NCBI RefSeq assembly: GCF_010681825.2
Contig: NZ_CP066776.1
Location: forward strand, 3,348,001 to 3,412,000
Source of the DNA: Sulfuriroseicoccus oceanibius
GTDB lineage: Bacteria; Verrucomicrobiota; Verrucomicrobiia; Verrucomicrobiales; SLCJ01
Reading direction: 5' to 3'
Length of the DNA: 64,000 nucleotides
A program made the position numbers and the translations under genes. The notes under the pieces are model-generated. The model was given only the letters and a program-made list of their open reading frames with translations. It was not told where the DNA came from and did no database searches. Positions 30,133 to 48,389 of this stretch are shown here, one piece after another; position 1 is the stretch's first letter, and every line of letters starts with the position of its first letter.

Positions 30133-30257
30133 GGAGGTTTTGATAGCCGCGACAGGATGGCCAGACAATGGCAATCTGCCGATAGGTCCGCATTTCTGAC
30201 CGGAAGCAGCACCTCCTTGCATTCCCGCGTGGCGCACCGCATCCTTTCGCAGAACTC

Positions 30258-30680
30258 ATGGCCACTCCTGATCAAAACGAACTCACCTCCACCCGCGCCG
30301 ACAAATGGCTGTGGGCGACCCGTTTTTTCAAAACCCGCGCACTGGCGACCGAGGCATGCGCCGGTGACAAAATCAAACGCGACGGGAAAGCGATCAAAGC
30401 ATCCACCAACCTGAGCTGCGGCCAGCGGATCGAGATCTCGAAGGACGGACTGATCCGCGAAGTCGAAATCAACCGGGTGATCAACAAACGGGTCGGGCAC
30501 AAGGTCGCGATCGAGTGCTACATCGACCACACGCCACAGGCGCGGATCGATGCGGTGCGCGAACAGAAGGCGGCAGCAGCGGCCCACCGTCCGACCGGGC
30601 TTGGCCGACCGACCAAACGCGACCGCCGCGACATCGACTCGCTCAAACGCGCACTCGGCGACATGGGCTACGGGAAATAA
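30258..30680 (+). CDS. S4-domain RNA-binding protein, Hsp15-like
   Basis: 140 residues with an N-terminal S4 domain: RADKWLWATRFFKTRALATE, GDKIKRDGKAIKAST and GQRIEISKDGL. The Lys/Arg-rich C-terminal tail ends GRPTKRDRRDIDSLKRAL. In E. coli, Hsp15 binds stalled 50S subunits with nascent chains after heat stress; the tail DRRDID-type is a known feature of the family. It diverges from mtnP. Confidence 0.9.
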   Translation: MATPDQNELTSTRADKWLWATRFFKTRALATEACAGDKIKRDGKAIKASTNLSCGQRIEISKDGLIREVEINRVINKRVGHKVAIECYIDHTPQARIDAVREQKAAAAAHRPTGLGRPTKRDRRDIDSLKRALGDMGYGK

Positions 30681-30707
30681 TTTCATTAGCAAGGCTCACC
30701 ACACCCG

Positions 30708-32711
30708 ATGGAACTTCGAGAATTTGCCCAACGCGTGCTTTTCGCCACCACCCTGGAAGAAAAGCTCGCCGGCCCGCCCGCGGGAGATCCGATCACCGAC
30801 AACGATCCGGGCGGAGCCATCGCCGGCAGCCCGACACCGGGACGCCCCGCCGACCTGAGGATGCACCGGAGTGGCGAGAAGATCAATTTCCCGAAGGACC
30901 CGACACTGATCGACGAGGAGAAGCGCGCGATTTTGCTCCACTTTTTCGCCAACCACGAGCTATTGGCGGTCGAGCTGATGGCGCTGGTGCTGCTCAAGTT
31001 CCCCGACGCCCCCAAGCGCTTCCGCAAAGGGATCTACAACACATTGCGGGAGGAGCAAGCCCACACCAAATGGTACACCAGCCGCATGCAGCAGTGCGGT
31101 GTCCATTTCGGCGACTTCCCGGTCAGCGGCATGATCTGGGAGCAGATCTCGACAATGGAGACGCCGCTCGACTACGTCAGCCGGTTGAGCCTTACGTTCG
31201 AGCAATCCAACCTCGACTACTCCAAGCACTATTCCGAGGTCATGACGCAGGCGGGCGACACCGCGACCGCGAAGATCCTCGGGCGCATCTATCGCGATGA
31301 AATCAGCCACGTGGGCTACGGGCTCCACTGGTTCCGCCACTGGAAAGACGAAAAGGACAACGACTGGCAGGCATTTAAAAAGCAGCTGAGGTTTCCGATG
31401 TCCCCGATCCGTGCCAAAGCGCATGGAAACGTACCATTCAACGCGGAAGGGAGACTTCGCGCCGGGCTGGAGCAATCGTTCATCGACGAACTTGAGGTTT
31501 TCGGAAGGTCGCGCGGCCGTACCCCGGACGTCTATTGGTTCAACCCGGGCTGTGAGGCGGAGATGGTGAACGCGGAATCCAAGGGACTGTCGGCATTGGC
31601 CCGTGATGCGGAGTTGCTCCCGATCGCATTCACCCATGCGGACGACGTCTTGCTCGTCAAACAGGAGCCGTCGCTCAAGCACCTGGCCTACCTGCAGAAG
31701 AATGGGTTCAACCTACCGGAAATCATCACCTCCACTCGGGAGCTCGACGACCGCAAGCTGCGCAACCTGAAACCGTGGGGCTGGTCGCCGACTGCCGAAC
31801 AAACCATCGGTGCGCTGCACAGCCAATGCCGCGGCGCCGACGAACAAGCCCGCCGCGCCGCAGATCACAACACCGCCTCCACACTCGCCAAGGAACTGAC
31901 CCTCACCGCGCAGCAGCGCTGGAACGAACAGACTGACCAGGCAAGGCTGGAGATCGGATGCGTCGGCACCGCTCACGAGACAATCGAATCGCTGGCAGCG
32001 CACGCCGCACGGCTCCGCGCGGAGGGCCACGAGTCGCTAGTCATGAAGAGCAACTACGGCGCCGCCGCCCAAGGCAACCAATGCCTATTTGATGGCACTC
32101 CCGTCGAGAAAGCGCATGGGTGGATCGAACGCCAACTTGCGGCAGGCCAGAGCATCATTTTGGAACCATGGCGCGACAAAGTGTTCGAATACTCTGCGCA
32201 CTTCGACCGCAGTGCTCCCGGCGTGGTGCGCTTCCAAGGGTTCACGCGCATCCACACCAACCGCCGGGGCCAGTGGAAGGCGAGCGAAGCTGGCGCGAAG
32301 TTTGGCACTGGTCTGACTCCGGAGCTGGCGGCCTTTCTTCATGCACGGCACGGCGCACTGCACGCCCACCAATCGTCGATGCCCGCGCTCCTCAACGATC
32401 TGCTCGAGCCTCTCGGCTATTTCGGTCCGGTCGGGATTGATGCGTTTGTCTGGAGGGACACCGGCGGCGAGCTACGCAACCAACTGATTGTTGAGATCAA
32501 CTGCCGCCACACCATGGGGCGGACGGCACTCGAATTGAGGCGACGTCTCGCCCCCGACCAGCACCTTTGTTTTCAAATCACCCGCGGCCCGCTCCCTGAA
32601 AGTGACGATCCGGCCGTTGTCCGCAACGTCGCCATCAACGATCCGGAGACCAACCCCGAATGGCACGCCACCGCCACCATCCGCAATGGCTGGATGCCGG
32701 TGACGATATAG
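30708..32711 (+). CDS. Fusion protein: DUF455 ferritin-like domain plus ATP-grasp-like ligase domain
   Basis: 667 residues. The first part (about 1-285) is a DUF455/ferritin-like helical domain: helices with HELLAVELMALVLL, REEQAHTKWY and YRDEISHVGYGLHWF give the E/H pattern of a two-metal site. The second part (about 300-667) looks like an ATP-grasp fold: SLVMKSNYGAAAQGN (nucleotide loop), SIILEPWRDKVFEYSAHF and the C-terminal GPVGIDAF ... VEINCRHTMGRTAL with acidic and Asn metal ligands. The pairing of an iron-type domain and a carboxylate-amine ligase in one chain is unusual; the product is not known. It follows the S4 gene by 27 bases. Confidence 0.8.
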   Translation: MELREFAQRVLFATTLEEKLAGPPAGDPITDNDPGGAIAGSPTPGRPADLRMHRSGEKINFPKDPTLIDEEKRAILLHFFANHELLAVELMALVLLKFPDAPKRFRKGIYNTLREEQAHTKWYTSRMQQCGVHFGDFPVSGMIWEQISTMETPLDYVSRLSLTFEQSNLDYSKHYSEVMTQAGDTATAKILGRIYRDEISHVGYGLHWFRHWKDEKDNDWQAFKKQLRFPMSPIRAKAHGNVPFNAEGRLRAGLEQSFIDELEVFGRSRGRTPDVYWFNPGCEAEMVNAESKGLSALARDAELLPIAFTHADDVLLVKQEPSLKHLAYLQKNGFNLPEIITSTRELDDRKLRNLKPWGWSPTAEQTIGALHSQCRGADEQARRAADHNTASTLAKELTLTAQQRWNEQTDQARLEIGCVGTAHETIESLAAHAARLRAEGHESLVMKSNYGAAAQGNQCLFDGTPVEKAHGWIERQLAAGQSIILEPWRDKVFEYSAHFDRSAPGVVRFQGFTRIHTNRRGQWKASEAGAKFGTGLTPELAAFLHARHGALHAHQSSMPALLNDLLEPLGYFGPVGIDAFVWRDTGGELRNQLIVEINCRHTMGRTALELRRRLAPDQHLCFQITRGPLPESDDPAVVRNVAINDPETNPEWHATATIRNGWMPVTI

Positions 32712-32749
32712 CGGCTGTGATTCCGCTCCGATCATCCAGACCATCTGAC

Positions 32750-33625
32750 ATGAAAAACCTCCTGAAAAAGACCGCACTTACCGCACTACTCCTCTCCACC
32801 CTATCAGGCGCTCAAGCTGCGGAGTCCTATCCGCTGCATCAGCTGGATTACACGTTACCGACAGGCACTGTAGTCACCACCGAATACACCGGTCACTGCG
32901 ACGAGATGAAGATCCGCTTCCAAAACGGAAATCAAGCCAGGACCGGCGCAGGCTCGCTTCACCAACACAGTGAGACTATCGACCGAACCCTCGGTCCATC
33001 GGAAAGAGAAATCGAGGTAACCGAAAACCAGACTAACCGAGCTCTTACAATTAATGGGATTCCCATGCCGTCTCGACCGGAAATAGACCCATTGCGAGGA
33101 GTCAAGATGCTTGCGGTGAAGGTCGGCAATCGATGGCAGCTAAAGTTTCAACCAAATGCGGAACCCACCAGCGAGCAAAAGACCAAACTTAAACAGAAAG
33201 AGGCGTCGATGAACGCCAAGCGCTGGCACTATTCACTCGTCCCACGCCATGTCGGCGAAACCTGGCAAGGCGACATGGACATGTTAAAGTCGATTTCAGG
33301 ATTGGATCGCGACATCAAGGGCGAAATGACAATCACCTTCTCGAAGCTCACCGAATATCACGGTCAGAAGTGCGCGGTGTTGGATTTCACTTTCCAGGTC
33401 ACAGGCAAGAATGATGAAGGGGCCACCATGGTGCTCAAGGGGCAGGGAAGCTCGACGCGCTCGCTAATCCACTTCATCGACCTCAAGCGTGATTCCAAAG
33501 TCACATCCACCATGACTCGCACCGAGGGAGCGCGTTCCCTGACAATGGACATGCCAACATCGCTCTCGACGAGAACGACGATCACCAGACCAAACGAACC
33601 AGAAAACGGCGAATCCCCTCAATGA
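32750..33625 (+). CDS. Secreted protein of unknown function, 291 residues
   Basis: Starts with a signal peptide: MKNLLKKTALTALLLSTLSG then AQA. The mature protein is beta-rich, hydrophilic and Thr/Lys-rich, ending in a Thr/Arg stretch (SLSTRTTITRPNEPENG). I recognise no family with confidence. The ATG at 32750 was chosen over an upstream in-frame start that overlaps the DUF455 fusion gene and has no signal. The stop of the upstream gene is 38 bases before. Confidence 0.75.
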   Translation: MKNLLKKTALTALLLSTLSGAQAAESYPLHQLDYTLPTGTVVTTEYTGHCDEMKIRFQNGNQARTGAGSLHQHSETIDRTLGPSEREIEVTENQTNRALTINGIPMPSRPEIDPLRGVKMLAVKVGNRWQLKFQPNAEPTSEQKTKLKQKEASMNAKRWHYSLVPRHVGETWQGDMDMLKSISGLDRDIKGEMTITFSKLTEYHGQKCAVLDFTFQVTGKNDEGATMVLKGQGSSTRSLIHFIDLKRDSKVTSTMTRTEGARSLTMDMPTSLSTRTTITRPNEPENGESPQ

Positions 33626-33862
33626 TGCTCTCGTAGAGAACCACGTCCCCGTGATCCGTCGCATTGCGAGTACCCTCTACAAGCGACCACATCGAGACCG
33701 GCAGCGGAGCGGACGCCGCACCCACGATCACCGCTCCCCCCTTCGAATCCGAACGATTCCCAGACAGCGGTGGCAAAAGTGGATTTTCGCCCTTATCTAT
33801 AGAGCGTTCGCTCACGGCGCATCCTGCGCGGGGCGGCAGCAACACAAAATCGACGTATCACT

Positions 33863-44628: not shown

Positions 44629-44714
44629 GCCCCTGCCAAGCAGGGAAATTCTCCGAATTGAAAACGATCCGCGACTTGATAGCCACGGACCGAGTCGCTA
44701 CGCTCGCCTCCAAT

Positions 44715-45431
44715 ATGATCTCCCATCCTCTTCGCTCCATCGCGCGCTTGCTACTCGCGTTGGTGGTCACCTGGGCCTCTCTGGGGACGGCCGCAGCCGC
44801 CGACGACAAGATTGACGTTGCCAAGCACTTCGAAGGCAAGTTGCTCAAGCTTGCCTCCAACGGCCAACCAGTTCCCTACGAAACGACGGCCAAGCCGCAG
44901 TTCTACCTGATCTACTTCGCCGCCAGCTGGTGAGGCCCATGCGCGAAAGTGACACCCGGGTTGGTGTCCAAATACCGTGAACTCAAGCAAGGTCCTAACG
45001 GCAATCAGTTCGAAGTCATCTTCGTCTCGGCAGACCGAGGTCCCGACGAAATGATCAAGTACATGCGCAAGACCAGCATGCCGTGGCCTGCGCTCGACTA
45101 CATCGAGATGAACAGCGCGAAGCCATTTCGCAAAATGACGGGAGGCGGCATCCCGAACGCACTTCTTGTCACCAAAGACGGCCGCTACATCAACAGTGGC
45201 TACAAGAACAAGGGCAAAGGAAAATACCAAGGTGTTGGCCCGGTCGTTGAAACCTTGGAGCAACTTCTCTCCGTCGAAGGTGGCGCCGAGGCAGTCGAAG
45301 AAGCCGCCGAGAGCGCGGTAAAGGAAGCTGCCGCCAAGGCCGCTGCCATATTCGATGTGTCACAGACCCGCTGGACCGTTGCCATCGTGCTGGCCTCCCT
45401 GACCTTCCTGTTCCTTTTCTTCAAGCGCTAG
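44715..45431 (+). CDS. Exported thioredoxin-like selenoprotein A (UGPC motif, in-frame TGA = Sec73)
   Basis: 238 residues read through the TGA at 44931-44933. Order: signal peptide (MISHPLRSIARLLLALVVTW then ASLGTAAAA), a short N-terminal part, the beta strand FYLIYFAASW, then U-G-P-C. Downstream the thioredoxin fold goes on: SKYRELKQGPN, FEVIFVSADRG, MPWPALDY, and the cis-proline loop GGGIPNALLVTKDG. The C-terminus has one membrane helix (WTVAIVLASLTFLFLFFKR), so it is anchored facing the periplasm. Without read-through, each half makes no sense: the first stops at the active-site tryptophan and the second has no good start. The related TGA-containing genes B and C support Sec. A TTG start upstream at 44658 is possible but lacks a good signal. 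Confidence 0.85.
44931..44968 (+). promoter_or_regulatory. TGA (Sec) codon and SECIS-like hairpin of gene A
   Basis: TGA at 44931-44933, then 17 bases, then GACACC-CGGGTT-GGTGTC (44951-44968): a perfect 6-bp stem with a GG-containing 6-base loop. Bacterial SECIS elements sit right after the UGA and have a short stem with G in the apical loop, bound by SelB. Confidence 0.75.
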
Positions 45432-47204: not shown

Positions 47205-47894
47205 ATGAAAACACACTGCAGAAGCCTCGCTCTGGCTGGTCTGGCGCTCGCACTCAGCGCCAGCGCGGATGCCAGAACCTGGACCAGCTCTGACGGCTCC
47301 AAGACATTCGAAGGCACGTTCATCAGCGAACGCGGCGAGAAAGTCACCGTCGATGTCAACGGCCGCCGCCTCACATTCACAAAAGACAAACTGTCCGAGG
47401 CCGACCAAACATGGATCGCTGAGAACAGCAAACCTGAACCACCAGAAGCCACCGGAGAAGCGGATCTGTCGTCACAAGCAATCGGCAAAGAGGTGGAGAA
47501 GAAACTCGCCAAACTCGACGGCAAACGGGTCAAATCCTACAAACTGACCAAAGCACCCGAGTACTACATCCTTTACTTCTCGGCCAGCTGGTGAGGCCCT
47601 TGTAAATCTTCTGCTCCACAGTTGGTGGAGAAATACAACGACCAGATCGCCGATAACGACAAAGCCGAGATGATTCACATCAGTCTCGACCGCAGCGATG
47701 AAGCCGCAGAGAAGTGGGCAAAAAACGCCAAGATGCCATGGCCTATCATGCTTCCTAAAAAGGCCAACAAGACATCATTGAAGAAATTTGCCGGACGCGG
47801 TGTCCCTCACTACGTCCTCGTCGACAAAGATGGCAACAAACTCGCAGAAGGCCAATACCAAGCCTTCAGCAAACTGAAGGAACTGACCAAATAA
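47205..47894 (+). CDS. Exported thioredoxin-like selenoprotein B with SHD1-like domain (UGPC, in-frame TGA = Sec130)
   Basis: 229 residues when the TGA at 47592-47594 is read. Order: signal peptide (MKTHCRSLALAGLALALSAS), an SHD1-like domain (about residues 24-75, RTWTSSDGSKTFEGTFISER then VTVDVNGRRLTFTKDKLSEAD), a linker, then the thioredoxin-like domain: EYYILYFSASW-U-GPCKSSAPQLVEKY, AEMIHISLDRSDEAAEKWA, MPWPIMLPKKAN and GRGVPHYVLVDKDGNKLAEG with the cis-proline. SHD1-like domains are usual in secreted Planctomycete and Verrucomicrobial proteins. The next gene starts 6 bases after its stop. Confidence 0.88.
47592..47630 (+). promoter_or_regulatory. TGA (Sec) codon and SECIS-like hairpin of gene B
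   Basis: TGA at 47592-47594, 19 bases, then CTCCAC-AGTTG-GTGGAG (47614-47630): 6-bp perfect stem with a 5-base loop containing GTTG. Same layout as gene A with different bases. Confidence 0.78.
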
Positions 47895-47900
47895 CACCCC

Positions 47901-48389
47901 ATGAAGCAATTCGCTCTCCCCATAGTCAAGGCGCTCGCATTCCTCGCGATCGCAGCAACCGCCCACGCCGGCACGATCAAAGAAAAACTCGCTGGGAACA
48001 CATCGGTGCTCGAAGGCACTGAGTTCAAAGCCCAGGATATCCAAGGCGAGCCGGAATATTACATTCTCTATTTCTCGGCCAGCTGGTGAGGACCATGCCG
48101 TAGTACCGCTCCACAGTTGGTGGAGACTTACGCGAAGACCATCGCCACGAACGACAAAGTCGAAATGGTGCACCTCAGCGCCGACCGCAACGCAAAAGCC
48201 GCGACTACCTGGGCGGCCAAGGAAAAGTTCCCATGGCCAACCGTCCTTCCTGAAAAGGTGAAAGCCACCGGGTTGGAAAAGTACGCCGCAGGCTACGTTC
48301 CCGACTACATCCTCGTCGATAAAGAAGGCAAGGAACTGGCCCGCAAGAGCGGCGCCGTATTCGCCAAGCTCAAAGAACTCACCGAGTAA
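47901..48389 (+). CDS. Exported thioredoxin-like selenoprotein C (UGPC, in-frame TGA = Sec63)
   Basis: 162 residues through the TGA at 48087-48089. It is the shortest of the three: signal peptide (FALPIVKALAFLAIAATAHA), a 30-residue lead, then EYYILYFSASW-U-GPCRSTAPQLVETYAKT, VEMVHLSADRN, FPWPTVLPEKV and AGYVPDYILVDKEGKELAR with the cis-proline. It is clearly a duplicate of B: from YYILYFSASWUGPC to the end they align with few gaps. It follows B by 6 bases, so B and C are one operon, closed by the terminator at 48416. Confidence 0.88.
48087..48125 (+). promoter_or_regulatory. TGA (Sec) codon and SECIS-like hairpin of gene C
   Basis: TGA at 48087-48089, 19 bases, then CTCCAC-AGTTG-GTGGAG (48109-48125), identical to gene B, though other bases between TGA and stem differ. 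Confidence 0.78.

What the first reader, a model, noticed from the sequence alone, without database searches (positions are those of the whole stretch)
30708..32711. Fusion of a ferritin-like DUF455 domain and an ATP-grasp-like domain
A di-metal helical domain followed by a ligase-type domain in one 667-residue protein suggests oxidation then ATP-dependent coupling (or a peptide/amino-acid modifying enzyme). The product is unknown.
Basis: inference. Interest (0 to 1): 0.5.

Follow-up and report, generated by a model that had tools for sequence, protein, structure and literature searches.

The report
Diiron domain fused to ATP-grasp ligase
One bacterial protein joins an iron-binding, probably oxygen-handling domain to an ATP-driven ligase domain of the kind that links amino acids; both parts look active and have travelled together through evolution, but what it makes is unknown.

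Summary
The 667-aa ORF is real and both domain calls hold. Residues 42-259 match DUF455 (PF04305, 2.6e-50). The six ligands expected of a ferritin-like diiron site (E84, E116-x2-H119, E165, E198-x2-H201) are identical in 64 of 64 full-length relatives. The C-terminal half has no database match of its own. Family profiles place it among ATP-grasp enzymes, nearest to amino-acid/peptide ligases: PGM1-like proteins (hhalign 98.5%), LdmS model (7 of 39 members, best 1.9e-6), PDB 7r8p 2.7e-7 and PGM1 4.1e-5. K395, K447, D578, E596, N598 and R600 are 64 of 64. AlphaFold gave no usable model of this half, so the fold rests on sequence. The fusion occurs in 26 of 57 nearest relatives, 14 of 288 sampled genomes of the phylum and 40 of 58 genomes of a second, small phylum. 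Its halves diverge in step (r 0.81). No neighbouring gene is widely conserved. Most likely it is a single-chain "oxidise and ligate" enzyme for amino-acid-like substrates; the oxidation, substrates and product are untested. My paper searches found no report of it. New variant of a known kind.

The parts
30708..32711 (+). Gene for the 667-aa fusion protein, stop codon included
   Evidence: only copy in the genome
30831..31484 (+). DUF455 (PF04305) ferritin-like domain, residues 42-259
   Evidence: 2.6e-50, above the curated cut-off; low-confidence model is a four-helix bundle, top 50 Foldseek rows are all ferritin/Dps-type, none below E 0.001
30957..30959 (+). E84, predicted Fe ligand
   Evidence: 64 of 64; also in two stand-alone DUF455 proteins
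31053..31064 (+). E116-x2-H119, predicted Fe ligands
   Evidence: 64 of 64 each
31200..31202 (+). E165, predicted Fe ligand
   Evidence: 64 of 64
31299..31310 (+). E198-x2-H201, predicted Fe ligands
   Evidence: 64 of 64 each
31509..31526 (+). Interdomain motif S-x-G-R-x-P, residues 268-273
   Evidence: S 61, G 64, R 63, P 62 of 64; absent from the two Bacteroidales stand-alone homologues, which begin just after it
31533..31787 (+). Pre-ATP-grasp region, about residues 276-360
   Evidence: PF18604 matched here in relatives; shared with stand-alone homologues; boundary approximate
31875..32627 (+). ATP-grasp region, about residues 390-640
   Evidence: boundary approximate
31890..31892 (+). K395, conserved lysine, possible nucleotide contact
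   Evidence: 64 of 64, but not aligned with a lysine in the stand-alone homologues
32046..32048 (+). K447, predicted ATP-phosphate lysine
   Evidence: 64 of 64; 17 of 17
32439..32441 (+). D578, predicted Mg ligand
   Evidence: 64 of 64; 17 of 17
32493..32507 (+). E596-x-N598-x-R600, predicted Mg ligands and arginine
   Evidence: 64 of 64 each; 17 of 17

Best explanation
A self-contained two-site enzyme. The C-terminal half is an ATP-grasp ligase of the L-amino-acid/peptide-ligase type: it would use Mg-ATP to turn the carboxylate of one amino-acid-like substrate into an acyl phosphate, which the amine of a second substrate attacks to give an amide (dipeptide-like) product. The N-terminal half is a DUF455 ferritin-like diiron domain that activates O2 and oxidises one of the substrates or the coupled product. 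Shown here by sequence: the fusion, both complete sets of predicted catalytic residues, the family relationships, and long common descent of the two halves. Inferred: metal identity, oxygenase chemistry, amino-acid substrates, order of steps, product. Rough odds: C-half is a working ATP-grasp ligase 0.95; N-half binds a diiron centre 0.85; both sites act in one pathway as described 0.45.
For: DUF455 at 2.6e-50, in 28 of 28 relatives. Six diiron ligands 64 of 64, kept in distant stand-alone DUF455 proteins. N-half profile's PDB hits: 8 of 13 are diiron ferritin-like proteins, best R2 at 0.011. C-half: PreAtp-grasp 8 of 28; LdmS 7 of 39; hhalign 98.5% to PGM1-like with nine controls at 0.1-0.5%; PDB 7r8p 2.7e-7, PGM1 4.1e-5, ATP-grasp peptide ligase 1.2e-4, propargylglycine-glutamate ligase 0.0086, and 15 of 17 hits up to E 10 are ATP-grasp proteins. 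K447, D578, E596, N598, R600 invariant in fusions and stand-alone homologues. Divergence of the halves correlated, r 0.81, 0 of 999 permutations as high. Precedent: heme-oxygenase-like diiron oxidases lie near ATP-grasp ligases in at least 25 gene clusters (passages of PMC13185094).
Against: No match for this protein's own C-half in Pfam, NCBIfam or PDB sequences. Direct hhalign to RimK, RimK-like, AccC-like and CarB-like profiles is weak (0.3-10.9%). Without added stand-alone homologues the only ATP-grasp PDB hit is 7r8p at 0.0027; the extended profile already held three PGM1-like proteins. The stand-alone Bacteroidales homologue L071 has no significant Pfam or PDB match. The C-half has no usable structure model. 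No conserved pathway neighbours name a product. The ligase half exists without DUF455 (L071) and DUF455 without a ligase, so each can work alone. Oxygenase activity of any DUF455 protein is not shown by any search.
Confidence: 0.45

Rival explanations
1. The ATP-grasp half makes the amide product alone. The diiron half is not an oxygenase but a ferroxidase, peroxide-reducing or iron/O2-sensing domain that protects or gates the ligase.
For: The N-half's best sequence and fold resemblances include bacterioferritin and ferritins as well as oxygenases. A stand-alone DUF455 gene lies next to a peroxiredoxin gene in Sphingomonas. The ligase family works without DUF455 in Bacteroidales.
Against: The fold matches are weak (none below E 0.001) and cannot separate ferroxidase from oxygenase. 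Fusion-specific residues near the ligands (H83, Q117, Q166, N168, 64 of 64; changed in two stand-alone proteins) suggest a site tuned to a specific job.
Confidence: 0.3
2. A peptide- or protein-modifying enzyme: the ATP-grasp half adds or cross-links residues on a peptide or protein (as RimK, PGM1 or graspetide ligases do) and the diiron half oxidises the same peptide.
For: PGM1, a peptide ligase (passage), is among the nearest structures; RimK-family models hit the PGM1-like relatives.
Against: No neighbouring gene family recurs in more than 4 of 34 fusion-bearing loci (ORFs of 80 aa or more, so short precursor peptides would be missed); hhalign to RimK is 0.3%.
Confidence: 0.15
3. The second half is not a working ATP-grasp enzyme, or has another fold.
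For: No match for this protein's own C-half; structure model uninformative.
Against: predicted catalytic residues 64 of 64.
Confidence: 0.03

Closest known systems
LdmS, L-aspartate--L-methionine ligase (NCBIfam NF047900); PDB 7r8p/7r8q is probably this protein (recalled, not checked in any call)
   Same: Nearest named family of the C-half: 7 of 39 members hit the model, best 1.9e-6; 7r8p is the best PDB hit
   Different: No DUF455 domain in the model; all scores shown are far below its 475-bit cut-off; substrates here unknown
PGM1 peptide ligase (3wvq) and PGM1-like proteins
   Same: PGM1 hit at 4.1e-5; PGM1-like proteins of the same phylum at hhalign 98.5%; PreAtp-grasp model shared
   Different: No diiron domain; PGM1 acts in a pheganomycin pathway (passage of PMC8939145), here no gene cluster
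Bacteroidales stand-alone ATP-grasp-like hypothetical proteins (L071, WP_122246558.1; L072)
   Same: Homologous to the whole C-half, pre-ATP-grasp region included (hhalign 100%, P 4.1e-41)
   Different: No DUF455 domain, and no DUF455 among the annotated neighbours of L071; the stretch of L072 is unannotated
Stand-alone DUF455 proteins (PF04305) of proteobacteria
   Same: Same domain and the same six predicted metal ligands
   Different: About 275-285 aa, no ATP-grasp half, about 27% identical to this N-half
Heme-oxygenase-like diiron oxidases clustered with ATP-grasp ligases (mangotoxin MboA with MboC/MboD)
   Same: Diiron oxidase plus amino-acid ligase acting on related substrates (passages of PMC13185094)
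   Different: There separate proteins in gene clusters and a heme-oxygenase-like fold; here one chain, a ferritin-like domain, no cluster

Membership tests
DUF455 (PF04305) | Whole-protein score above Pfam's gathering score | tested here: met
   171.7 bits against 34.3
Ferritin-like diiron proteins | E / E-x2-H / E / E-x2-H on four helices | tested here: met
   Ligands 64 of 64, on helices 70-97, 103-129, 153-181, 185-213 of a low-confidence model
Ferritin-like diiron proteins | Bound Fe (or Mn) pair and O2 chemistry | not testable with these tools
   Needs protein
ATP-grasp superfamily | Profile homology to proven members | tested here: met
   (through the family; this protein alone scores nothing)
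ATP-grasp superfamily | Nucleotide lysine and the D...E-x-N Mg ligands (motif recalled) | tested here: met
   K447, D578, E596, N598 64 of 64, 17 of 17
ATP-grasp superfamily | ATP-grasp fold | tested here: inconclusive
   AlphaFold pLDDT about 20-50 over the C-half with three sequences
LdmS (NF047900) | Score above the 475-bit equivalog cut-off | tested here: not met
   This C-half: no match up to E 0.1; the fusion L026 13.1 bits and stand-alone L071 31.4 bits
PGM1 / PreAtp-grasp (PF18604) | Score above the 27.5-bit gathering score | tested here: not met
   This protein: no match; shown relatives 13.6-22 bits; bits of the best member (1.6e-6) were not printed
Heme-oxygenase-like diiron oxidases | Haem_oxygenas_2-type domain | tested here: not met
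   2 of 28 relatives at E 0.1-0.2, below cut-off, none for this protein

The most novel reading that the evidence does not exclude
A single-chain 'oxidise and ligate' enzyme that makes an unrecognised small molecule of core physiology, such as an oxidised amino-acid dipeptide with a protective or signalling role. It would be shared by most members of one small phylum and scattered through a second, and needs no gene cluster, so cluster-based genome mining would not see it.
Probability: 0.2. Interest if true: 0.7.

Novelty: new variant of a known kind. Interest (0 to 1): 0.42.

Why it matters
DUF455 is listed by Pfam as a protein of unknown function. A partner domain of defined chemistry in the same chain narrows its likely substrates to those of an amino-acid or peptide ligase and makes the question testable with one purified protein. 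If the diiron half is an oxygenase, this would be a ferritin-like counterpart, in one polypeptide, of the diiron-oxidase plus ATP-grasp pairs described from natural-product clusters (passages of PMC13185094).

Tried and rejected
AlphaFold of the whole protein with three sequences (mean pLDDT 41) said nothing about the C-half. The N-half model (pLDDT 57) supports only a ferritin-like bundle; no Foldseek match reached E 0.001. Viral contigs gave no relatives for a deeper alignment (could not run). Neighbour analysis found no partner. Direct hhalign to RimK, RimK-like, AccC-like and CarB-like profiles was not significant. PF18604 is rare in the phylum: 2 of 115 genomes, none over its cut-off. Promoter scan of 30200-33700 found nothing.

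Considered and rejected: a chance ORF (relatives in two phyla); a wrong join of two genes (one open frame in dozens of genomes); a conserved biosynthetic cluster; membership in LdmS or in the heme-oxygenase-like oxidases.

Rows dropped: L029 and L030 (C-half only, short contigs) left out of A1; L024 (truncated) and L058 (near-duplicate) left out of A3; L021, L024, L025 (truncated), L003 and L058 (near-duplicates) and L094, L095 (the loci L002, L003 again) left out of the 64 sequences; six sequences without the exact S-x-G-R-x-P string left out of the 63 C-halves, which still hold L094 and L095 as duplicates. L077 and L079 carry the fusion but lost it to longer overlapping ORFs in the crude gene calling; they are counted among the 34 loci. 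Labels sulfatase, MQO, PPK, AccC-like and CarB-like for sets used are mine, from the look of the sequences, not from a call.

Full report
What is there. The ORF at 30708-32711 (+) encodes 667 residues from an ATG, 27 bases after an S4-domain gene. It is the only copy in its 3.5-Mb genome, and the only DUF455 there. Residues 42-259 are DUF455 at 2.6e-50; nothing is named in the rest of this protein by Pfam, NCBIfam or PDB sequence search.

Relatives. Of 57 nearest genomes searched, 28 match; 26 have both halves in one frame (three of these cut by contig ends), and two (L029, L030) show only the C-half on short contigs. With two MAG contigs labelled proteobacterial (L002, L003) the 26 form a 28-sequence alignment. 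In a sample of 288 genomes of the phylum, 14 carry the whole fusion and 3 carry only distant C-half relatives. The genome of L002 lies in a group of 58 genomes that the tool treats as one phylum; 40 of 58 match, 37 with one match spanning both halves, one with two matches in one frame, and two (G354, G369) with the first part of DUF455 on another contig. The fusion is therefore old and shared by two phyla. It is patchy in the window's own order: 14 of 14 sampled genomes of genus g3 and 14 of 14 of family f5 lack it.

The N-terminal half. E84, E116, H119, E165, E198 and H201 are identical in 64 of 64 full-length sequences and in two distant stand-alone DUF455 proteins. This is the usual ligand set of ferritin-like diiron proteins (general knowledge). 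Of the profile's 13 PDB hits up to E 5, 8 are such proteins (R2 best at 0.011; bacterioferritin, aldehyde decarbonylase, MiaE) and 5 are unrelated. A low-confidence model (pLDDT 57) puts the ligands on four helices; all 50 listed of 738 Foldseek matches are ferritin- or Dps-type, none below E 0.001. H83, Q117, Q166 and N168 are 64 of 64 in fusions but differ in the two stand-alone proteins.

The C-terminal half. Relatives hit PreAtp-grasp (8 of 28, best 1.6e-6), ATP-grasp_3 (1) and ATP-grasp (1); those whose scores were printed are below the curated cut-offs. Of 39 C-halves, 7 hit LdmS, best 1.9e-6, but not this protein's own. A 63-row C-half profile matches PGM1-like proteins of the same phylum (98.5%, P 3.9e-15) and Bacteroidales stand-alone proteins (100%). 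Nine controls (DUF455, three unrelated families, five reversed families) give 0.1-0.5%. Against that, direct matches to RimK, RimK-like, AccC-like and CarB-like profiles stay at 0.3-10.9%. Searched alone, fusion C-halves find one PDB entry below 0.01, 7r8p at 0.0027; the next hits are ferritins, taken as chance, at 0.19 or worse. Extended with two Bacteroidales and three PGM1-like proteins, the profile finds 7r8p 2.7e-7, PGM1 4.1e-5, an ATP-grasp peptide ligase 1.2e-4, L-propargylglycine--L-glutamate ligase 0.0086, then PurD, PurK and biotin-carboxylase-type proteins; 15 of 17 hits up to E 10 are ATP-grasp proteins, two are not. K395, K447, D578, E596, N598 and R600 are 64 of 64. K447, D578, E596, N598 and R600 are also invariant across the 17 sequences that include the stand-alone families; K395 is not. 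AlphaFold could not test the fold.

Do the halves belong together? Pairwise identities of the two halves across 64 proteins correlate at r 0.81, with 0 of 999 label permutations as high; the N-half is the better conserved (mean identity 0.50 against 0.29). This shows long joint descent, not joint chemistry. A motif S-x-G-R-x-P between the domains is nearly fixed in fusions and absent from the two Bacteroidales proteins. In 34 fusion-bearing loci the most widespread neighbour family occurs in 4 (ORFs of at least 80 aa). No ATP-grasp gene is annotated beside the two stand-alone DUF455 genes that I looked at, and no DUF455 gene beside L071; those plasmid gene tables are incomplete. None of 15 plasmid records with a match holds the fusion: 2 match the C-half only and 13 the N-half only.

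Reading. The best-supported account is a two-site enzyme that couples amino-acid-like substrates with ATP and oxidises a substrate or the product. The ligase half is close to shown by sequence; diiron binding is likely; oxygenase chemistry and joint action are inference. Heme-oxygenase-like diiron oxidases are reported near ATP-grasp ligases (1447 sequences, at least 25 clusters, among them MboA with MboC/MboD; passages of PMC13185094). Here the diiron domain is ferritin-like and the two parts are one chain. The main rival is that the diiron half protects or regulates.

Literature. Searches for DUF455, COG2833, ATP-grasp with ferritin-like, ATP-grasp ligase with ferritin-like, and ATP-grasp with diiron and fusion protein listed no paper whose title or abstract start concerns this fusion; I did not read every listed paper. 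The one passage naming DUF455 itself that I read says that it was related to a known fold only through designed intermediate sequences (PMC4520260). PMC8939145 was seen in passages and does not mention ferritin. The LdmS paper is not held; I know it from a reference list and recall, and that 7r8p is LdmS is recalled.

Noticed in passing
window 44658-45431, 47205-47894, 47901-48389 (+): Three thioredoxin-like ORFs, two of them adjacent, each with an in-frame TGA at the active-site motif W-U-G-P-C. The genome has SelA (1.9e-112) and a tRNA-Sec with anticodon TCA, so they are probably selenoproteins that ordinary gene callers would split. No SECIS element was sought; the start of the first ORF is uncertain.
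   Followed up: partly
L089 and L091 (genomes G009, G108): PGM1-like stand-alone ATP-grasp proteins are followed in both genomes by the same second gene, which looks like a peptidase (my label from the sequence).
   Followed up: no
L002, L003 (genomes G324, G325): MAGs deposited as Proteobacteria fall in a 58-genome group that the tool treats as one phylum, so the depositors' label is probably outdated; 40 of 58 carry the fusion.
   Followed up: partly
L071, L072: Bacteroidales 'plasmid' records carry a 402-419 aa ATP-grasp-like hypothetical protein that is homologous to the whole C-half and hits the LdmS model (8.4e-8 and 0.009); the records look like chromosome pieces (housekeeping genes around).
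   Followed up: partly
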